Positions 17,901 to 26,720 of a stretch of DNA of 64,000 nucleotides are shown piece after piece. The notes beneath the pieces were generated by a model that saw only the letters and a program-made list of their open reading frames with translations, did not search any database and had not been told where the DNA came from. How positions within the stretch are numbered: position 1 is the first letter of the stretch; each line of letters starts with the position of its first letter. The stretch covers positions 568,036 to 632,035 of the forward strand of contig NZ_LMDF01000006.1 in NCBI RefSeq assembly GCF_001425745.1. The letters are read 5' to 3'. The translations under genes were made by a program, and so were the position numbers. Origin of the DNA: Caulobacter sp. Root343. Lineage in GTDB: Bacteria; Pseudomonadota; Alphaproteobacteria; Caulobacterales; Caulobacteraceae.

Positions 17901-18530
17901 CCGATGAACGACGGCTGCCTGCGGCCGGTAGAGCTGGTCATTCCGGAGGGTTCGATGCTGCGGCCGCGCTATCCGGCGGCGGTGGTGGCGGGCAATGTCG
18001 AGACCAGCCAGGTGGTGGTCGACGCCCTCTATGGCGCGTTGGGCGTGATGGCGGCGGCGCAAGGGACGATGAACAACTTCACGTTCGGCGATGACCGTCG
18101 GCAATACTACGAGACCATCTGCGGCGGCTCCGGCGCGGGGCCGGGCTTCGCCGGGACCGACGCGGTCCAGACCCACATGACCAACAGCCGCCTGACCGAC
18201 CCCGAGGTGCTGGAAACCCGTTATCCGGTGCTGGTCGAGGCGTTCTCGATCCGGCGCGGCTCGGGCGGGGCGGGCGGTTATCGCGGCGGCGACGGTGTCG
18301 TGCGCAAGATCGGCTTCCGCGAGCCGATGACCGCCACCTTGCTCTCCAACCGCCGCCGCGTGCCGCCGTTCGGGTTGGAGGGCGGCGAGCCCGGCGCGGT
18401 CGGCAAGGCGTGGATCGAGCGAGCGGATGGCGGCGTGCGGACGATGGCGGCCACCGACCTCGTCGAGGTCGACGCGGGCGACACGATCGTCATCGAGACG
18501 CCCGGCGGCGGCGGCTGGGGAAGGGCGTGA
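14919..18530 (+). CDS. 5-oxoprolinase (ATP-hydrolysing), fused HyuA-HyuB form
   Basis: A 1203-residue protein in which hydantoinase A-type (residues ~10-690) and hydantoinase B-type (~700-1200) modules are fused, the layout of 5-oxoprolinase, which converts 5-oxo-L-proline to glutamate with ATP. The N-terminal phosphate loop [11 protein letters not shown] and [14 protein letters not shown] belong to the HyuA ATPase-like fold, as does [11 protein letters not shown]. The B half holds [29 protein letters not shown] and [11 protein letters not shown]. Relatives include acetone and acetophenone carboxylases and hydantoinases, which are usually split, so oxoprolinase is favoured. The ATG at 14919 follows AAGGAG by 11 bases. 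The TGA overlaps the next ATG by one base. Confidence 0.88.
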
Positions 18531-19006
18531 TGGCCAGGGCCAGTGTGCTGTTCGTCTGTCTGGGCAACATCTGTCGCTCGCCCCTGGCCGAGGGTGCGTT
18601 CCGGGCGGAAGCCGAGCGCCTGGGGCTGGACGTCGTCGTCGACTCCGCCGGCACGGGCGGCTGGCACGCGGGCGATCCGCCGGACCCGCGCTCGGTCGGT
18701 GTGGCCCGCCGCAACGGCGTCGACATCGGCGGCCAGCGGGCTCGCAAGGTGACGAAGGACGACTTCCGGACCTTCACCCACATCTACGCCCTGGATCACG
18801 ACAACCTGGAAGGCCTGCGGGCCATCGCCCCGCGCGACGCGACGGCCGAGGTCGGGCTGCTGCTGGACCTGGTTCCCGGCCACGAGGGCAGGGCGGTGGC
18901 CGATCCCTACTACGGCGACGACACCGGCTTCGACGTGACCTGGCGTGATGTGGTGATGGCGGCCCAGGTGCTGGCGCGGCGGTTGGCGGATGAGGGGTGG
19001 CGATAA
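18530..19006 (+). CDS. low-molecular-weight protein tyrosine phosphatase
   Basis: A 158-residue LMW-PTP. The N-terminal active-site loop CLGNICRSP (CX5R, nucleophilic Cys10) and the C-terminal general-acid motif ADPYYGDD are both present, as is the D-S-A-G-T-G stretch typical of the fold. It should remove phosphate from tyrosine (or arginine) in the cytoplasm; the substrate is unknown. Its ATG shares one base with the oxoprolinase stop (TGATG), so the two are translationally coupled. No tyrosine kinase or capsule cluster lies nearby. Confidence 0.92.
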   Translation: MARASVLFVCLGNICRSPLAEGAFRAEAERLGLDVVVDSAGTGGWHAGDPPDPRSVGVARRNGVDIGGQRARKVTKDDFRTFTHIYALDHDNLEGLRAIAPRDATAEVGLLLDLVPGHEGRAVADPYYGDDTGFDVTWRDVVMAAQVLARRLADEGWR

Positions 19007-19752: not shown

Positions 19753-20466
19753 CTAGCCGCCGAAGCCGCCGCGATAGCCGCCGCTGCTGGCGTAGCTGCG
19801 ACCACTGGAGGAACTGCGGCCCGTGGCGTAGCTGGAGCTGTTGCCGTAGCTGCTTCGGGCATAGCTTCGATCACCGCCGAACCCGCCACGCGAAACAACC
19901 GAAGTGCGGGTCTGGACCTTGGGCGGCGTTTGGCGGATCGCGGCGGGCGGATCAATGCTCTCGCGCGTGATCACCGTCCGGCCGGTGCTGTAGTCCCGGT
20001 CGAGGCGACCGCCCCAGGCGGAGTAGTACCCGCCGCCGTAGTCGTCGCTGCGGCGGTAGAGACTGGTGCCGCGATAGCCGCCGCCATCGAGCATCCGGCC
20101 AATCACGAAGCCGGCGAGCAGCGGCGTGAAGAAGCTCCCGCTCGAGCCGTTGTTATAGCTGCGCGGTACGCAGTTGCCGGGTCCGTAGACGTCCTCGCAG
20201 GTGGAGCGTTCGTCGTAGCGCGGCGCGGATTCCGCATCGTCCTTTTGGGCCGCGGCATACGACGTACGGCACTGGTCGTCCGGGACCTCGTCGGCTTTCA
20301 GGCACTCGGCGAGCGTTTTATAGTTGTAGGCCTGAATCTGTTCGCCGCGATTGGGGTCGAAGCTGGCTTGCGAGTTGTGATCCTCGCAGCCGGTCAGGCC
20401 CAGCGTGGCCGCGCCGGCCAACATGGTGGTCAGTTGCAGCGAGGCGGAGCGTTTGCGCGTGGTCAT
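19753..20466 (-). CDS. DUF1190 lipoprotein, YjfM/YgiB-like
   Basis: A 237-residue outer-envelope lipoprotein with a lipobox (LGLTGC, Cys at about residue 27) after a basic N-terminus. It has the DUF1190 layout: an N-terminal Cys-containing region (YNYKTLAECLKADEVPDDQC, then RSTCEDVYGPGNC), a short hydrophobic TPLLAGFVIGRMLDGGG, and a Gly/Ser/Arg-rich tail. E. coli YjfM and YgiB belong to this family; their function is unknown. It is the last gene of a tight minus-strand run with yjfL-, yjfK- and channel-type genes, 11 bases after the DUF350 stop. Confidence 0.85.
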   Translation of the reverse strand: MTTRKRSASLQLTTMLAGAATLGLTGCEDHNSQASFDPNRGEQIQAYNYKTLAECLKADEVPDDQCRTSYAAAQKDDAESAPRYDERSTCEDVYGPGNCVPRSYNNGSSGSFFTPLLAGFVIGRMLDGGGYRGTSLYRRSDDYGGGYYSAWGGRLDRDYSTGRTVITRESIDPPAAIRQTPPKVQTRTSVVSRGGFGGDRSYARSSYGNSSSYATGRSSSSGRSYASSGGYRGGFGG

Positions 20467-20477
20467 CCTGGACGTCC

Positions 20478-20891
20478 TTAGGCGGTCATGCAGGCGGCGT
20501 TCAGCAGGCCGACCGCGATCGAGACGCCCGCCAGATAGATGCCGATCGAGGTCTCGCCATTCTCGATGCGCGTCTTGACGTCGGGCAGGGCGATCATGCG
20601 CACGATGGAGAAGGTGACGATCTGGATGACGCCGGCCAGGGTCGCCCAGGCGGCGAATTCCGGCAGGCTGACGGTATGGCTCAGCGCGGAAGCCAGCGGC
20701 AGGACGTAGCCGATCAGGGCGCCGGCCAAGGCGATGGCGGCGGCGACGTTGCCGCCGCGGATCAAGGCCTTCTCGTTATAGGGCGTGATCCACTGGTAGA
20801 TATATTTGAAGGCGATCGTGAAGAGGCCCGCCGCCACGAAGGCCAGCAGGAAGGCGAGCGCGCCATCCTTGAAAGCGATAAGGTCGAACAT
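20478..20891 (-). CDS. DUF350 inner-membrane protein, YjfL-like
   Basis: A 137-residue integral membrane protein with four predicted helices (ALAFLLAFVAAGLFTIAFKYIY, NVAAAIALAGALIGYVLP, FAAWATLAGVIQIVTF, IGIYLAGVSIAVGLLNA), matching the two-repeat DUF350 family to which E. coli YjfL belongs. The role is unproven; the genomic link to PspA and an ATP-grasp ligase is conserved in other proteobacteria. It sits 15 bases after the DUF2491 gene and 11 bases before the DUF1190 gene, so co-transcription is near certain. Confidence 0.88.
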   Translation of the reverse strand: MFDLIAFKDGALAFLLAFVAAGLFTIAFKYIYQWITPYNEKALIRGGNVAAAIALAGALIGYVLPLASALSHTVSLPEFAAWATLAGVIQIVTFSIVRMIALPDVKTRIENGETSIGIYLAGVSIAVGLLNAACMTA

Positions 20892-20906
20892 CTTGGTGTG
20901 GCCCCC

Positions 20907-21551
20907 TTAAGCCTTGAACTCGCCCGCCGACAGCGGCAGGCCGATCATCATCTCGTGCGTCACCTCGCCGCCTTCCGGCTCGAGCGTCAACGCCAACATG
21001 AGTTCGCGGCCGTCGCCTGGCAGGTCGCGGCTGAACAGCATGGTGGTTTGGAAGAGCCGCTTGTCGGGCGTCGTGGCCGCGCGGTCGTAATAGACGTCTT
21101 CCCAGAACGTCACCGGATCCGCCTCGGCCGCGTCGTCGCCGAACCAGAAGCGGCGATACTCCGGCAATTCGGGCGGCTGGAAGGTGCGCTGACGGAGGCG
21201 TTGCGCCCAGTCGAAACGGCTGCCATCGCCGCTGTTCGGATATTCGCTGGCCCACGGCAGGAAGATTGTGAAGTCGTTGGCCATTTCGCCGGCGGCGTCG
21301 TCCGAGACCGCTTGGAACATGATCTCGTCGTCGGTGTAGAACCGATGGACGAAAGCCCCTTCGTTCAACCCGATCACGCCCTGGGCGGTGATCTCCAGGG
21401 TGTCGCGGTCGAGGGCGAAGCGGGTCTCGGCCCCGAAGCGTCGCCACGTCAGCGGATCAAGGATGACCGTACGACCCACCGTGACGTTGCGGACCACGGG
21501 CAGCGCGGCTTGAGGCTCTCTGTCCTTGCCGCCGAAAAGCTTGCCGAACAT
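20907..21551 (-). CDS. DUF2491 protein, YjfK-like
   Basis: A 214-residue soluble protein of the DUF2491 family (E. coli YjfK). It begins MFGKLFGG, then a beta-rich body (GRTVILDPLTWRRFG, LEITAQGVIGLNEGAFVHRFY, FTIFLPWASEYPN) and a conserved FWEDVYYDR motif near residue 150. The short amphipathic N-terminus FGKLFG could touch the membrane, as the PspA N-terminal helix does. The function is unknown. It begins five bases after the stop of the channel gene. Confidence 0.85.
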   Translation of the reverse strand: MFGKLFGGKDREPQAALPVVRNVTVGRTVILDPLTWRRFGAETRFALDRDTLEITAQGVIGLNEGAFVHRFYTDDEIMFQAVSDDAAGEMANDFTIFLPWASEYPNSGDGSRFDWAQRLRQRTFQPPELPEYRRFWFGDDAAEADPVTFWEDVYYDRAATTPDKRLFQTTMLFSRDLPGDGRELMLALTLEPEGGEVTHEMMIGLPLSAGEFKA

Positions 21552-21556
21552 CGCGC

Positions 21557-22588
21557 TCAGGCTCCCATCGGATCGGCTAGCCGCTGCTGGGCCACGTAGA
21601 ACAGCCGGGCGCCGGTCGGCAGGTCAGCCTGACTGCGGACGTCGAACGACGGCTGGTCCGCGCCGGCGGCCTGCCAGGCCAGGAGGGTGGCGTCTCGCTC
21701 GTGCAGTCGCTTGGCGGCCTCGTCGATCGTCGCCGGCCGTTCGCCCCGCCACTCGGCGCAGTACAGGGTGGCGGAGTCGTCAAGGTGGCTGATCAGGGCG
21801 CTCAGCACCCGGCTGGCGCCAGGGTCCTGGACCGCGCGCACCACGAGTTCGGGTCCCGGCGCGATGATCGCTTCGACGTGTGGACAGTGCAATTTCAACA
21901 GGCCGGCGGCGTGATGGTCCTGGAAGTAGCAGACCACGTGCGCGGTTTCATTGATGCCGCTGATGGCGAGGGCGGCGGCCAGAGTGTCAGGGTCGTTGTC
22001 CGTATAGATCGCCACCCGCCGAGCATTGTGCGCGCCGGCGCGGCGAAGTTCGTTCGGATCGGTGAGCGTGCGGGCGCGGATATAGAGGACGCGCTCGTCG
22101 GGGTCCGCCAGTTCCTTGCGCGTGATCAGCACCACGCGCTGGCCGCCGGCCTCGGCGTGCAGTTCCTCGATCATCTTCGGCGTCTGATCGGGAACGAACC
22201 CGATCACCACAGTCGTATCCGTCATGCGTCGAAAATCTCCGCGGCCTTCTCTGCGCCGCCGCCAGAAGTCGCCCATGGCCGTGAGGCTCTTGGCGACGAT
22301 CGTCGTGAAGATGGCGATCGCGCCTGGAAACACGAAGGCCGCCGTGACCAGCCTTCCGGCGGGCGTCTGGGGGCTGAGGTCGCCATAGCCCACGGTGTAG
22401 GCGGTGGTGGCGTACCAATAGAGGAAATCGACCGGCGCGACGATCTTGGATTCGCCATCCAGCATCATCAACAACCATGACAGGCTGGCGTGAGCCGCGG
22501 CGGCCGCGCCCAGCACCCACCAGTGAAGCTCAGCGACGGCGAGGTGGAGCCGGTCCGCCGTGCGTCGAAGAAGAATTACGAGCGACAA
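21557..22588 (-). CDS. two-helix potassium channel with RCK/TrkA-N regulatory domain
   Basis: A 343-residue channel subunit: a first membrane helix (WWVLGAAAAAHASLSWLLMML), the selectivity filter TVGYGD at about residue 65-70, a second helix (LVTAAFVFPGAIAIFTTIVAK), then a cytosolic Rossmann-type TrkA-N domain (TTVVIGFVPDQTPKMIEELH) as in MthK/Kch-like channels. The start is a TTG at 22588 with a weak G-rich ribosome site, so it could be mis-set by some codons. It leads the minus-strand arm of the yjf locus. In E. coli the yjf operon has no such gene, so here a K+ conductance appears wired to a PspA-type membrane-stress system. Confidence 0.88.
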   Translation of the reverse strand: MSLVILLRRTADRLHLAVAELHWWVLGAAAAAHASLSWLLMMLDGESKIVAPVDFLYWYATTAYTVGYGDLSPQTPAGRLVTAAFVFPGAIAIFTTIVAKSLTAMGDFWRRRREGRGDFRRMTDTTVVIGFVPDQTPKMIEELHAEAGGQRVVLITRKELADPDERVLYIRARTLTDPNELRRAGAHNARRVAIYTDNDPDTLAAALAISGINETAHVVCYFQDHHAAGLLKLHCPHVEAIIAPGPELVVRAVQDPGASRVLSALISHLDDSATLYCAEWRGERPATIDEAAKRLHERDATLLAWQAAGADQPSFDVRSQADLPTGARLFYVAQQRLADPMGA

Positions 22589-22635
22589 GCTTGCCCCCAG
22601 CCCAAGTCAACTGCAGGATGAACGCGAACCGCATC

Positions 22636-22668
22636 TTGTCAAGCGTACATGTTATGCGTACATGTAAC
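22636..22668 (+). promoter_or_regulatory. promoter with tandem 13-bp repeats (candidate RHH autoregulatory operator)
   Basis: GCGTACATGTTAT (22643-22655) is followed at once by GCGTACATGTAAC (22656-22668), a direct repeat with a 13-bp period, each unit containing the self-complementary GTACATG(T/A)-like core ACATGT. TTGTCA (22636-22641) and TACATG (22659-22664) are 17 bases apart and would place the transcript start at the ATG itself (22671). On the other strand TTGACA (22642-22637) is a good -35 for the divergent channel gene. Confidence 0.55.
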
Positions 22669-22670
22669 GC

Positions 22671-23342
22671 ATGCCGGTCAAACCGACGAGAGGCGCTCAA
22701 GCCGCTGAAAGGACCCGCGCGTGGCGTGAAGCGCGCAGGAACGCCGGCTTCGTGAAGATCGAGGTCTGGGCGCCGGCGGCGTGCAAGCCCGACATCCTCT
22801 CGGCCGTGCAGGCGATCGTCGTCGAGTCGGTCCGCGGACCGACCCTGGCCACCAACCCCCATCCCCCCAAGGGCGTCAGACACATGGACTCCGTTATCGA
22901 CACCGCCTGGACGATCCACAGCCTGCGCGACGCGCTGGCCGAGAGCGCCCTCGTGCGCCAGGACGAATTGACCGCCACCGTCATCGAGGGCGTCGAGCCG
23001 GTTCTGCTGGTCGTCATGCATGAGTTCGGCGACCTGCCGATCTATGTCAGCGGCGGTTCGCTGCAGATGGTCGTCTCGACCATTCTGTGGCCCTGCGACG
23101 AGCAGAACGAGCGCGCGGCCTTCAACGAGTTCCTGCTCAAGGCTCAGAAGATCGTGCCGCTGTCGAATTTCGGCATCACCACGGTGGACGGCCGCGACTA
23201 TTATGAGCTGATGGGCGAGATTTCGTCCAAGACCACCCTGCAGACGCTGATCATCGAGCTGCGCACCCTGGCCGACAACGCCATCGCCGCCGCCAGCGAG
23301 CTGCGCGACTCCTTCGAAAAGAGCCGCGTCGCGGCCGCTTAA
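22671..23342 (+). CDS. DUF2170 protein (YjfI-like) with N-terminal ribbon-helix-helix-like domain
   Basis: A 223-residue protein whose C-terminal ~150 residues (from about residue 72, starting MDSVIDTAWTIHSLRDALAE) are DUF2170, the family of E. coli YjfI. The first ~55 residues (RTRAWREARRNAGFVKIEVW, then a helix CKPDILSAVQAIVVE) look like a MazE/CopG-type ribbon-helix-helix: basic helix, turn, strand, helix. E. coli YjfI is much shorter and lacks it. No ribosome site precedes the ATG at 22671, but a promoter is placed so that the mRNA would be leaderless; an ATG at 22884 would give only the DUF2170 part. RHH proteins bind tandem operator repeats, and such repeats lie directly upstream. Confidence 0.75.
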   Translation: MPVKPTRGAQAAERTRAWREARRNAGFVKIEVWAPAACKPDILSAVQAIVVESVRGPTLATNPHPPKGVRHMDSVIDTAWTIHSLRDALAESALVRQDELTATVIEGVEPVLLVVMHEFGDLPIYVSGGSLQMVVSTILWPCDEQNERAAFNEFLLKAQKIVPLSNFGITTVDGRDYYELMGEISSKTTLQTLIIELRTLADNAIAAASELRDSFEKSRVAAA

Positions 23343-23369
23343 GACAAAGAGATCTGGAGACTTAAATCG

Positions 23370-24128
23370 ATGTCGATCTGGAGCAAGCTCTCGGCGCTCT
23401 TCCGCGGCACGGCCCATGACGGGGCCCAGACGATCGTGGACGCCAACGCCCTGAGGATCCTGGACCAGGAAATCCGCGACGCCGACAGCGCCCAGGGCAA
23501 GGCCCGGGACGAGCTGGCCAAGCTGGTGGCGCGCCGCCGCTCGCTGGAGACCGAGGTCGCCCAGCTGACCGACCAGTCGCGCAAGTACGAGTCCTCGGCC
23601 CGCGCAGCCATGAACAAGGGCGACCAGGCTCTGGCCCTGGAAGTGGCCCAGCGGATCGCCGACCTCGAGAAGGACGCGACGCAGAAGGCCGGTCAGATGA
23701 CCGAGCTGCGCACGGCCGAGGAAAAGATGCGCACGATCATCGCCCAGACCGACACCAAGGTCGAAGCGCTGCGTCGCGAAATCGAGATGGTGAAGGTCAA
23801 CGAGAGCGTCCAGAAGGCCCAGGCGGCGGTGATCTCGCGCTCGGGCTCGGCCAGCGGCGTCGTCGGCTCGGCCGCCGATAGCTTGAAGCGCATCAAGGAA
23901 CGCCAGTCGGTCCGCGAGGAGCAGTTCCGCCTGCACAGCGAGTCCGAGGACCGCAAGACCGGCGCCGACCTCGACGCCAAGCTGGCCGCGGCCGGCATCC
24001 TGCCGGGCGGCGGCGGCGCCGAGGATGTGCTGGCCCGCCTGATGGCCCCCAAGGACGAAGCTCTGCCCGCGCCCATGCTGGCGATCGAGGACAAGGCCAA
24101 GGTCGCCCGGGACGGCTCGGACGCCTGA
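23370..24128 (+). CDS. PspA/IM30 family protein, YjfJ-like
   Basis: A 252-residue PspA/IM30 (ESCRT-III-like) protein. Residues ~1-20 form an amphipathic membrane-binding helix (MSIWSKLSALFRG), and residues ~25-190 form the long coiled coil (ILDQEIRDADSAQGKARDEL, KYESSARAAMNKGDQALALE). The C-terminus is a short Gly-rich linker and tail. PspA proteins coat and remodel stressed inner membranes and keep the proton barrier. The gene lies 27 bases after the DUF2170 gene and overlaps the ATP-grasp gene by one base. An AGATCTGGAG ribosome site precedes the ATG. Confidence 0.9.
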   Translation: MSIWSKLSALFRGTAHDGAQTIVDANALRILDQEIRDADSAQGKARDELAKLVARRRSLETEVAQLTDQSRKYESSARAAMNKGDQALALEVAQRIADLEKDATQKAGQMTELRTAEEKMRTIIAQTDTKVEALRREIEMVKVNESVQKAQAAVISRSGSASGVVGSAADSLKRIKERQSVREEQFRLHSESEDRKTGADLDAKLAAAGILPGGGGAEDVLARLMAPKDEALPAPMLAIEDKAKVARDGSDA

Positions 24129-25291
24129 TGCGCCGTCTCACCCTGACGCCTCGGCCGGACTGGAAGTCCAAGGCCGAGGCGGTCGGCTTCACCTGGCACC
24201 ATGCCGACGGCCGTCGCTATTGGGACGAGCGGGCGGCCTACGCCTTCACGCTGGAAGAGGTCGAGGGCCACCTGGAGCCCGCGACCGAGGCGCTGCACAA
24301 GCTGTGCCTCGACCTGGTGGCCGACGCCGTCCAGAGCGACGCCCTGATGGCCCGGCTGCAGATCCCGGAAGCCTCGCGCGATGTGGTCGCCGCCTCGTGG
24401 AAGGCGCGCGATCCGTCGCTCTATGGCCGCTTCGACTTCTTCTACGACGGGGCGGGTCCGCCCAAGCTCTATGAGTACAACGCCGACACCCCGACCAGCA
24501 TCTATGAGGCGGGCGTGTTCCAGTGGCTGTGGCTGGAGGACCTGATCCAGCGGGGCGCTCTGCCCGAGAGCACAGACCAGTTCAACAGTCTGCACGACCG
24601 GCTGGCCGAGCGGTTCAAGGAGATCTTCCCGAACGGCGGCTTCGTCCATTTCGCCAGCGACGCCGATTTCGTCGAGGATCGCCAGACGGTGCGGTTCCTG
24701 GAGGACATGGGCAGGCTGGCGGGCCTGGAGCCCAAGTTCGTACCGATCACGGAGATCGGCCTCGACGCCGACGGCCGCTTCGTTGATCAGGACAACTACC
24801 TGATCGGCGCGATCTTCAAGCTGCACCCCTGGGAAGAGATGCTGCGCGAGCCCTACGCCGCCAACATCGCCGCCAGCAAGACCTTGTTCCTGGAGCCGCC
24901 GTGGAAGGCGGTGCTGTCCAACAAGGCTCTGCTGCCGCTGCTGTGGGAGCGCCACCCGGGCCATCCGAACCTGCTGGAGACCTATTTCGACGACGACCCC
25001 AAGGTCGAGCGCCTGGGCGCCAGCTATGCCCGCAAGCCGCTGTTCAGCCGCGAGGGCGCCAATGTCGAGCTCTGGAAGGACGGCCGCAAGGGTCGGGTCT
25101 TGGACCAGGGCTATGGCGCGGAAGGCTGGATCCGCCAGGAACTGAAGCCGCCGCCGAAGTTCGGCGTGAACTATCCGGTGGTCGGCTCCTGGGTCATCGG
25201 CGATCAGCCGGCCGGGATCGGCGTGCGCGAGGACCGGGGACGGGTGACGCGTGACCGCTCGCGGTTCGTGCCCCACATCATCGAGGCATAG
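24128..25291 (+). CDS. glutathionylspermidine synthase-like ATP-grasp ligase, YjfC/YgiC-like
   Basis: A 387-residue ATP-grasp protein of the glutathionylspermidine-synthase C-terminal family. Landmarks are FDFFYDGAGPPKLYEYNADTPTS (metal/ATP-binding acidic strand), the ELKPPP region near residue 338, and the C-terminal VVGSWVIGDQPAGIGVREDRG with its Gly-rich motif. True Gsp synthetases carry an extra amidase domain and are near 620 residues; this is the ligase domain alone, like E. coli YjfC and YgiC, whose substrates are unknown. It should form an amide bond, possibly to a polyamine or peptide. The ATG overlaps the PspA gene stop by one base. Confidence 0.88.
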   Translation: MRRLTLTPRPDWKSKAEAVGFTWHHADGRRYWDERAAYAFTLEEVEGHLEPATEALHKLCLDLVADAVQSDALMARLQIPEASRDVVAASWKARDPSLYGRFDFFYDGAGPPKLYEYNADTPTSIYEAGVFQWLWLEDLIQRGALPESTDQFNSLHDRLAERFKEIFPNGGFVHFASDADFVEDRQTVRFLEDMGRLAGLEPKFVPITEIGLDADGRFVDQDNYLIGAIFKLHPWEEMLREPYAANIAASKTLFLEPPWKAVLSNKALLPLLWERHPGHPNLLETYFDDDPKVERLGASYARKPLFSREGANVELWKDGRKGRVLDQGYGAEGWIRQELKPPPKFGVNYPVVGSWVIGDQPAGIGVREDRGRVTRDRSRFVPHIIEA

Positions 25292-25356: not shown

Positions 25357-25412
25357 TTCCCGTGAGAGAAAGGTGTCCAACGACAACGACGCCTTCGGGG
25401 AGAGACGTCCAG

Positions 25413-26720
25413 ATGACCCACCGCGCCGCCGCCATCGGCCTGTTCCTGTCCGCCAGCCTGCTGGTTGCGCCGGCCTTCGCGGGCGTCATCGGGACCAACG
25501 TCCCGGCCCAGCCGATCACCGCCGCCCGGATCGCGACCCTGCCGGCCGCCCAGCAGCCGGCGTGGAAGGCCTATCTCGACCGCTCGACCGCCCAGGAGAA
25601 GGCCGACCGCGCCGCCCTGGCCGCCGAGCTGAAGCCGGGCGAGGTCGCCCCAGCGCCACCGCCGTCGGGCCACGGCGACGGCGGCATGGCGCTGAACAAG
25701 GACGCGGCCTGGTACGCCTCGCCCGAGGCGCGCCACATCGCCGACGTCATCGTCAGCTTCCAGACCCCGGCCGGCGGCTGGAGCAAGAACCAGGACCGCG
25801 AGGGCGCCCTACGCCTGCCGGGCCAGCCCTGGGCCTCGGACAACAATTCCAAATATCTCAGCGAGAACGACTTCGACGCCGCCCGCGACCCCAAGTGGGG
25901 CTATGTCGGCACGCTGGACAACAACGCCACCATCACCGAGATGCGCTTTCTCGCGAAAGTCGCCGCGCGGCTGCCGGGCCAGGACGGCGAGGCCTATCGT
26001 CAGAGCTTCCTGAAGGGCGTGCGCTATCTCTTGGCCGCCCAGTTCCCGAACGGCGGCTGGCCGCAGGTCTGGCCGCTGGAAGGCGGTTATCACGACGCCG
26101 TCACCTTCAACGACAACGCCGTCTCCGAGGCCGCCGCCCTGTTGACCGAAGTGTCCGAAGCCAAGGCCGACTTCGCCTTCGTGCCCACCGACCTGCGCGC
26201 CAAGGCCGGCGTGGCGGCCAAGCACGGGCGCGAGGTCATCGTCGCCTCGCAGATCCGCATCGACGGGAAACCGACCATCTGGGGCCAGCAGGCGGACCCG
26301 TTCACCCTCGAGCCGGTCGCCGGTCGCAACTTCGAGCCGCCGGCCCTGTCGACGGGCGAGAGCGCCGACCTGCTGATGTACCTGATGAGCCTGCCCGACC
26401 CGACCCCCGCGGAGGTGGCCGCGGTCCACGGCGGCGTGGCCTGGATGAAGGGCGCGGCGATCATGGGCAAGGCCTGGATCGGCGGAAAGGGTGACCCCGA
26501 GGGCCGCCGCCTGGTCGACCAGCCCGGCGCCGGCCCGATCTGGTCGCGCTACTACAGCCGCACGACGGGCAAGCCGGTCTTCGGCGAGCGCGACAAGACC
26601 CTGCGCGACGAGGTCAACGAACTCTCGCTGGAGCGCCGCAACGGCTATTCCTGGTTCGGCGCCCAATCGGCCAAGGCGATCAAGGCGTATGAGACCTGGG
26701 CCAAGAGCCACCCGAAGTAG
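25413..26720 (+). CDS. pelA: pectate lyase, polysaccharide lyase family 10
   Basis: A 435-residue secreted lyase that cleaves polygalacturonate by beta-elimination. A Sec signal (AAAIGLFLSASLLVAPAFAG) leads into an (alpha/alpha)-barrel of PL10 type with landmarks VIVSFQTPAGGWSKNQDR, GTLDNNATITEMRFLAKVA, NGGWPQVWPLEGGYHDAVTF and the substrate-binding SRYYSRTTGKPVFGERD near the C-terminus. The ATG at 25413 has GGGGAGAG eight bases upstream. It stands alone on its transcript but shares an operator-like site with the STN receptor gene 10 kb away. A family 1 REP element marks its 3' end. Confidence 0.9.
   Translation: MTHRAAAIGLFLSASLLVAPAFAGVIGTNVPAQPITAARIATLPAAQQPAWKAYLDRSTAQEKADRAALAAELKPGEVAPAPPPSGHGDGGMALNKDAAWYASPEARHIADVIVSFQTPAGGWSKNQDREGALRLPGQPWASDNNSKYLSENDFDAARDPKWGYVGTLDNNATITEMRFLAKVAARLPGQDGEAYRQSFLKGVRYLLAAQFPNGGWPQVWPLEGGYHDAVTFNDNAVSEAAALLTEVSEAKADFAFVPTDLRAKAGVAAKHGREVIVASQIRIDGKPTIWGQQADPFTLEPVAGRNFEPPALSTGESADLLMYLMSLPDPTPAEVAAVHGGVAWMKGAAIMGKAWIGGKGDPEGRRLVDQPGAGPIWSRYYSRTTGKPVFGERDKTLRDEVNELSLERRNGYSWFGAQSAKAIKAYETWAKSHPK

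What the first reader, a model, noticed from the sequence alone, without database searches (positions are those of the whole stretch)
19753..25291. Two-armed yjf system with a K+ channel and a self-regulating DUF2170 protein
All six E. coli yjfI/J/K/L/M/C families are present but split into divergent arms, with a TVGYGD-RCK channel added as first gene of one arm. The mixture of PspA membrane coat, DUF350 membrane protein, DUF1190 lipoprotein, ATP-grasp ligase and ion channel suggests an envelope-stress or membrane-potential module with a peptide- or polyamine-modifying enzyme. Its biochemistry is largely unknown.
Basis: partly seen in the sequence, partly recalled or inferred. Interest (0 to 1): 0.78.

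Follow-up and report, generated by a model that had tools for sequence, protein, structure and literature searches.

The report
Self-repressed PspA envelope-stress gene cluster
This Caulobacter gene cluster is a known kind of membrane-stress system with a potassium channel as a long-standing but often lost member, and it shows two little-noticed features: a likely DNA-binding domain on its regulator with a matching site at its own start, and a surface protein whose tail ends in two glycines, as if built to be tagged by the cluster's own polyamine-attaching enzyme.

Summary
The inventory is published: Ravi et al. 2024 list DUF2170(CesT/Tir)-PspA with ATP-grasp ligase, K+ channel, DUF350, DUF1190 and DUF2491.

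The channel is no chance addition. In an even proteobacterial sample, 19 of 24 complete six-gene loci carry it, on DUF2491's strand, and it co-diversified with its neighbours. Most Caulobacter lack it: 4 of 55 DUF2491-bearing genomes have it. The window's channel arm is unusually diverged, also at synonymous sites.

Two things I did not find in print. (1) This DUF2170 protein has an N-terminal MazE-like region, absent from E. coli YjfI and the BacA crystal chain, and a conserved, partly palindromic site abuts its start codon (15 of 15 loci with the region, 0 of 20 scored without): probably a cis autorepressor. (2) The DUF1190 lipoprotein ends in Gly-Gly (125 of 132 non-independent loci). Outside this cluster it does so in 29 of 35 loci beside a peptide-spermidine ligase gene and 0 of 5 without: a candidate ligase substrate. 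Function is inferred throughout.

The parts
19753..20466 (-). DUF1190 lipoprotein (YjfM/YgiB family), lipobox LTGC, C-terminus ...GGYRGGFGG
   Evidence: Pfam 4.5e-38; C-terminal GG in 125 of 132 loci; lipobox-like motif in 117 of 132
20478..20891 (-). DUF350 inner-membrane protein (YjfL family)
   Evidence: Pfam 1.6e-36
20907..21551 (-). DUF2491 protein (YjfK family)
   Evidence: Pfam 7.6e-51
21557..22588 (-). K+ channel with TVGYGD filter and RCK-type cytoplasmic part; first gene of left arm
   Evidence: Pfam Ion_trans_2 1.1e-11 and TrkA_N 1.3e-5; best solved relative MthK 2.2e-10
22635..22670 (.). putative operator/promoter: CTTGTCAAG followed by a partly palindromic site, ending at the base before the ATG of the DUF2170 gene
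   Evidence: phylogenetic footprint; one copy in own genome at up to 3 mismatches
22671..22880 (+). N-terminal MazE-like region of the DUF2170 protein (about 70 residues), putative DNA-binding part
   Evidence: 19 of 44 relatives' N-termini match PF11455 at E up to 1, best 1.4e-5; the window's own does not; hhalign 87% against at most 5.5% for 30 column-shuffled controls
22671..23342 (+). DUF2170 (YjfI/BacA family) protein, 223 aa; residues 78-217 have the CesT/Tir-like fold
   Evidence: Pfam 1.5e-48; model against BacA 8q8o TM 0.88, Z 19.3
23370..24128 (+). PspA/IM30 family protein (YjfJ/BacB)
   Evidence: Pfam 8.7e-63
24128..25291 (+). ATP-grasp peptide-spermidine ligase family (YgiC/YjfC)
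   Evidence: Pfam 9.1e-145; solved YgiC 7.1e-120 and YjfC 3.5e-109; only copy in own genome

Best explanation
A PspA-type envelope-stress module under cis autorepression. Shown by sequence: seven genes in two divergent arms; a DUF2170 protein made of an N-terminal MazE-like region and a CesT/Tir-fold domain; a conserved site at its own start codon that occurs only where the region is present in the loci scored; a DUF1190 lipoprotein ending in Gly-Gly. Inferred: (1) the DUF2170 dimer binds the site and shuts its own promoter, and perhaps the shared divergent one; (2) its chaperone-like domain senses free PspA, so that membrane damage, which draws PspA to the membrane, changes the repressor and derepresses the module, an inverse of the PspA-PspF logic; (3) PspA, DUF350, DUF2491 and, where kept, the channel act at the inner membrane; (4) the ATP-grasp ligase joins spermidine to the C-terminal glycine of DUF1190, giving a lipoprotein with a polycationic tip that could hold on to anionic envelope lipids.
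For: Gene content and recurrence. Published grouping. Repression: loss of BacA (DUF2170) raises the other bac products 6- to 13.5-fold in P. aeruginosa. Fold. MazE-like region. Operator: model trained on proteins under 62% identical scores 18.2-22.8 in 15 of 15 loci with the region, 3.0 or less in 20 of 20 without, best of 1750 shuffles 13.6; strong inverted repeat in 38% of 77 distinct upstream stretches against 1% further upstream and 0.5% of shuffles. Ligase: closest solved relatives are YgiC and YjfC, annotated peptide--spermidine ligases. C-terminal GG: 125 of 132 loci, none of six other operon families; E. coli YjfM and YgiB both end in GG; 29 of 35 other ligase-linked DUF1190 genes against 0 of 5 unlinked (Fisher 7e-4). 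E. coli yjfIJKL is up in heat-evolved strains (PMC12492005, passages).
Against: No DNA binding, ligation or stress phenotype was measured here. The window's own N-terminus has no significant Pfam match, and its predicted model finds no solved relative. The window's operator is an imperfect palindrome; 47 of 77 stretches have exact TGTCAA. One 'without' locus, L102, has a divergent N-terminus of similar layout and no site, and a Pseudomonas plasmid locus with such an N-terminus was not in the test. Loci are related, so counts are not independent; the Fisher value ignores that. GG is lost in 11 of 59 ligase-linked loci of the phylum sample. DUF1190 has a lipobox while the ligase looks cytosolic, so modification would have to precede export. 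15 of 31 Caulobacter loci examined have neither the region nor the site, so autorepression is not universal. PspA as the signal rests on an unpublished interaction mentioned in the BacA paper.
Confidence: 0.5

Rival explanations
1. Regulation is by protein contacts only: DUF2170 is a chaperone for PspA (as T3SS chaperones are) and the N-terminal region is a protein-binding tail; the conserved upstream site is simply a strong promoter or belongs to another regulator.
For: The BacA authors favour protein-protein regulation; E. coli YjfI lacks the region; part of the footprint, TTGTCA 35 bases before the ATG, looks like a -35 element (by eye; no promoter scan was run).
Against: The site tracks the N-terminal region, not the operon: 15 of 15 against 0 of 20; the region is related to an antitoxin family; the site is partly palindromic and unique in the genome at up to 3 mismatches.
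Confidence: 0.25
2. The ligase makes a small polyamine-peptide metabolite (glutathionylspermidine-like), and the DUF1190 C-terminal GG serves something else, for example anchoring, processing or a shared partner.
For: GspSA makes glutathionylspermidine and is a distant relative; 6 of 35 ligase-linked DUF1190 genes outside the operon lack GG; topology is awkward.
Against: GG stays at the very end while the tail before it varies in length; GG goes with the ligase, 29 of 35 against 0 of 5; in E. coli each of the two DUF1190 genes lies next to its own ligase gene.
Confidence: 0.4
3. The channel is an accidental passenger at this locus.
For: 0 of 11 nearest loci have it; 11 of 31 strong channel homologues in the phylum sample stand alone.
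Against: 19 of 24 complete loci across the phylum carry it; 37 of 37 loci with both have channel and DUF2491 on one strand; distances correlate at r 0.92-0.95 with five operon genes, 0 of 999 permutations.
Confidence: 0.07

Closest known systems
Ravi et al. 2024 (PMC11237479), third CesT/Tir-PspA operon group
   Same: DUF2170-PspA, ATP-grasp ligase, K+ channel, DUF350, DUF1190 and DUF2491 together (section 19 read)
   Different: I saw no mention there of an N-terminal DNA-binding region on DUF2170, an operator, or the DUF1190 Gly-Gly end (passages; supplements not read)
P. aeruginosa bac operon, BacA (PMC10948618; PDB 8q8o)
   Same: DUF2170 protein followed by a PspA protein; BacA loss raises the operon's products; same fold
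   Different: The deposited chain matches only residues 78-217 of ours; the words DNA-binding, antitoxin and MazE do not occur in the text; there the operon is one arm with a proposed sigma-54 site
E. coli yjfIJKLMC and ygiBC
   Same: Same six families; DUF1190 beside a peptide--spermidine ligase in both; both DUF1190 proteins end in GG
   Different: One operon, no channel, YjfI of 133 aa without the N-terminal region
MazE-like antitoxins (PF11455)
   Same: Helix, GL/F..(V/I).(I/V/L)W.P strand and start of the next helix
   Different: Fused to a CesT/Tir-fold domain; no toxin gene among the seven genes
Classical Psp (PspF-PspABC)
   Same: PspA with an adjacent dedicated regulator gene
   Different: Repressor-like instead of the PspF activator (recalled)

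Membership tests
CesT/Tir-PspA operon group 3 of Ravi et al. | DUF2170-PspA dyad with ATP-grasp ligase, DUF350, DUF1190, DUF2491 and K+ channel | tested here: met
   all seven by Pfam against the list
DUF2170/BacA (YjfI) family | DUF2170 domain with CesT/Tir-like fold | tested here: met
   Pfam 1.5e-48; 8q8o TM 0.88, Z 19.3 over 138 residues
NCBIfam BacA equivalog | score over the curated cut-off of 300 bits | tested here: not met
   138.6 bits, residues 12-209; not filed as BacA itself
MazE-like antitoxin (PF11455) | own match to the family model | tested here: not met
   window N-terminus: no PF11455 match; relatives 19 of 44 at E up to 1, best 1.4e-5
MazE-like antitoxin (PF11455) | known DNA-binding fold | tested here: inconclusive
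   model of residues 1-75, pLDDT 75.8, no PDB match at E 0.001
MazE-like antitoxin (PF11455) | cognate toxin neighbour | tested here: not met
   none of the seven cluster proteins is a toxin family by Pfam
Peptide-spermidine ligase YgiC/YjfC | full-length GSP_synth domain close to the solved enzymes | tested here: met
   (profile 1-371 of 371)
Peptide-spermidine ligase YgiC/YjfC | spermidine ligation | not testable with these tools
   needs assay
RCK-gated K+ channel (MthK-like) | TVGYGD filter plus RCK domain | tested here: met
RCK-gated K+ channel (MthK-like) | Ca2+ ligands of MthK (residue numbers recalled) | tested here: inconclusive
   acidic residues of MthK seem unmatched in the one alignment; gating ligand unknown
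Classical Psp system | PspF, PspB, PspC | not tested
   no search was made for them

The most novel reading that the evidence does not exclude
The cluster makes a spermidine-tipped lipoprotein: the YgiC/YjfC-type ligase conjugates spermidine to the C-terminal Gly-Gly of its DUF1190 partner, a bacterial protein C-terminal polyamine modification, and the supply is set by a new kind of autorepressor that fuses a MazE-like DNA-binding region to a T3SS-chaperone-like sensor of PspA.
Probability: 0.35. Interest if true: 0.88.

Novelty: new variant of a known kind. Interest (0 to 1): 0.6.

Why it matters
The substrate of the YgiC/YjfC ligases and the role of DUF1190 are open questions as far as I could see in the held literature; a conserved terminal Gly-Gly that goes with the ligase gives a concrete, cheap test in E. 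coli K-12. The domain and operator give a route by which DUF2170 could repress its operon, which the BacA study left as protein contacts. The channel history corrects the idea of a chance addition and shows a member kept in most sampled lineages but lost or broken in others.

Tried and rejected
Channel as chance neighbour: rejected, while recording that 11 of 31 strong homologues stand alone and that nearest relatives lack it.

Recombination of the left arm: left arm of the window is about 78% identical to relatives at DNA level between flanks and right arm of 87-90%, DUF2491 and DUF1190 have raised synonymous differences but DUF350 hardly. Left-arm trees reject window with L032, L033, L036 (AU p 0.0059 protein; 0.0038 DNA); adding L034 gave p 0.083 on proteins and 0.01 on DNA. 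The right arm does not resolve the window's place: p 0.53 for the nine relatives as a clade on proteins, and 0.075, 0.19 and 0.084 for three groupings on DNA. So exchange of the arm is likely, not shown; direction unknown.

Pfam on five N-terminal fragments gave no MazE-like match; structure search with the N-terminal model found nothing. A degenerate 29-base operator pattern found no match in the window because I had inserted one base too many; the exact pattern search replaced it. A first lipobox count used the wrong stretch and was redone: 117 of 132; the 12 shown of the 15 misses read MAAC. PF11455 in 51 relatives hit 2 and in 200 phylum genomes 13, one of them, G178, at the DUF2170 gene itself. 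No promoter scan was run; promoter remarks are by eye.

Prior art: searches; the ligase paper (Pederick 2023) and an ATP-grasp survey were not held, so the Gly-Gly idea may already be in print there.
Full report
WHAT IS THERE. The seven genes are real and at the stated coordinates. In E. coli K-12 the six shared families form one operon, yjfIJKLMC, at the rlmB side of aidB. The window lies in a genome whose near relatives in the named collection are Caulobacter; the genus itself is not named by the genome tool.

KNOWN ALREADY. Ravi et al. 2024 (section 19 read) describe an operon group with the DUF2170(CesT/Tir)-PspA dyad, an ATP-grasp ligase related to glutathionylspermidine synthetase, a potassium channel, DUF350, DUF1190 and DUF2491. 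The P. aeruginosa DUF2170 protein, BacA, was studied by Wallart et al. 2024 (sections on introduction, purification, proteome, operon, structure and the first part of the discussion read): its loss raises five operon products 6.1- to 13.5-fold. RefSeq names E. coli YjfC and YgiC peptide--spermidine ligases. E. coli yjfIJKL is strongly raised in heat-evolved strains (PMC12492005, passages).

THE CHANNEL. In 75 genomes of the genus, DUF2491 occurs in 55. Channel orthologues with E under 1e-100 occur in 4, each directly upstream of DUF2491 on the same strand. In an even sample of 398 proteobacterial genomes, 29 have DUF2491. Of the 28 apart from the window's own, 24 hold all six families and 19 of these the channel, one of them (L095) with an in-frame stop. 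In gamma-proteobacterium-like loci the order is one operon DUF2170-PspA-channel-DUF2491-DUF350-DUF1190-ligase; in alphaproteobacterial loci the arms diverge and the ligase ends either arm. Among 80 named loci, nearly all Caulobacteraceae, 77 hold the left arm and 14 the channel. In 37 of 37 loci with both, channel and DUF2491 share a strand. Channel distances follow those of five other operon genes, r 0.92-0.95 in 21 loci, 0 of 999 permutations as high. Against exclusivity, 11 of 31 strong channel homologues in a phylum sample of 396 genomes stand apart, most in one genus, with none of the other six families in the stretches fetched. I conclude that the channel is an old, often lost member and not an addition. 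All 22 aligned channels lack a GxGxxG motif where a typical TrkA_N domain has it; the best solved relative is MthK.

A MOSAIC LOCUS. DNA identity of the window to L032, L033, L034 and L036 is 87-89% in the flank, about 90% or 88% in the right arm, and 77-78% in the left arm next to the channel. Window proteins of the left arm are 72-75% (DUF2491) and 74-78% (DUF1190) identical to nine relatives that are 81-97% and 80-96% identical to each other. Synonymous differences are raised too for DUF2491 (0.47-0.52 against 0.21-0.36 among four near relatives) and DUF1190 (0.42-0.46 against 0.27-0.34), hardly for DUF350, not for the right arm. Left-arm trees put the window outside the nine; the right arm does not settle its place. 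An exchanged or long-separate left arm that kept the channel is likely, not shown.

THE REGULATOR. The window's DUF2170 protein is 223 aa; E. coli YjfI is 133 aa by its coordinates. The extra about 70 residues, with invariant R, W, G, K, E, W and P positions, occur with an exact motif in 95 of 135 DUF2170 genes scored and in 16 of 31 loci of the genus; some others, such as L081, L102 and L103, have a divergent form that the motif misses. Nineteen of 44 such N-termini match Pfam MazE-like at E up to 1, best 1.4e-5, but the window's own does not. A separate search for MazE-like genes in 200 genomes hit this very gene in G178. Profile comparison gives 87% against at most 5.5% for 30 column-shuffled controls. 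The predicted model has helix 7-25, an unpaired stretch, helix 36-51, then the CesT/Tir-like domain, which matches the BacA crystal at TM 0.88. That crystal chain corresponds to our residues 78-217 only. The N-terminal model alone finds no solved relative, so its fold is open.

THE OPERATOR. Directly before the ATG lies CTTGTCAAGCGTACATGTTATGCGTACATGTAACGC (22635-22670). The stretch is conserved where the sequence further upstream is not: 1.16 against 0.35 bits per position in the 47 of 77 distinct stretches with TGTCAA. A model trained on 25 distinct sites from loci with proteins under 62% identical scores 18.2-22.8 in 15 of 15 other loci with the region and at most 3.0 in 20 of 20 without; the best of 1750 shuffles is 13.6. 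The 15 are close relatives of each other, and one of the 20 (L102) has a divergent N-terminus. The window's site has one copy in its genome at up to 3 mismatches. By eye, TTGTCA sits 35 bases before the ATG and reads TTGACA on the other strand, so both arms could share it; this is inference.

THE GLY-GLY END. The window's DUF1190 protein ends GGYRGGFGG. In 132 loci, many of them near-copies or the same genome twice, 125 end in GG (101 of 108 distinct tails); none of the genes of six other operon families does. The tail before it varies in length. E. coli YjfM and YgiB end in GG as well. In the phylum sample, 19 of 24 operon copies end in GG; of 40 further DUF1190 loci, 29 of 35 with a ligase gene in the stretch and 0 of 5 without do so. 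Fisher's exact value is 7e-4, not corrected for kinship. By the family codes, GG occurs in 14 of 16 families with the ligase-linked gene. As background, 134 of 3158 open frames of 200 aa or more in the loci end in GG, DUF1190 included. The known activity of the neighbouring enzyme family, spermidine onto peptides, and a C-terminal glycine as acceptor in its relative glutathionylspermidine synthetase (recalled) make the DUF1190 end the obvious candidate substrate. Spermidine on the C-terminal Gly-Gly of ubiquitin-like proteins was studied in PMC12270671 (abstract start and passages), as a chemical precedent. The lipobox (117 of 132) means that modification would have to come before export, which is the main difficulty.

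MECHANISM. See Best explanation. The published repression by BacA and a strong but unpublished BacA-BacB(PspA) interaction fit a repressor that reads PspA occupancy; the DNA-binding part and site found here are the missing piece. All functional steps are inferred.

VERDICT. Content: known. New here, as far as the held library shows: the regulator's N-terminal region with its site, the ligase-linked Gly-Gly end, and the channel's history. New variant of a known kind.

Noticed in passing
L095 and L191 (Brevundimonas viscosa), L080 (Rhizobium bangladeshense plasmid): The channel gene is interrupted: an in-frame stop in the Brevundimonas copy and two overlapping frames in the Rhizobium copy, where the plasmid gene table lists nothing. 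Channel decay seems recurrent.
   Followed up: partly
L035, L037, L038, L040-L042, L044, L046, L047, L049, L112, L113, L115-L117: Fifteen of 31 Caulobacter loci examined carry a second lineage of the operon whose DUF2170 lacks the N-terminal region and whose intergenic stretch lacks the site.
   Followed up: partly
G000 contig 8, 308388-308768 (L300 4880-5308): A second DUF350 gene in the same genome, beside a trypsin-like protease gene by eye.
   Followed up: no
L081 9337-9891 (pQBR103): A rhomboid protease gene sits between PspA and DUF2491 in the Pseudomonas plasmid copy of the operon.
   Followed up: no
window 18410-19006: A low-molecular-weight tyrosine phosphatase gene flanks the left arm in the window and nine nearest Caulobacter loci.
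   Followed up: no
window 25362-26720: A pectate lyase gene follows the right arm on the same strand, also in L032, L033, L036 and L096.
   Followed up: no
window 19753-20466: The DUF1190 tails of E. coli YjfM and YgiB end in GG too.
   Followed up: yes
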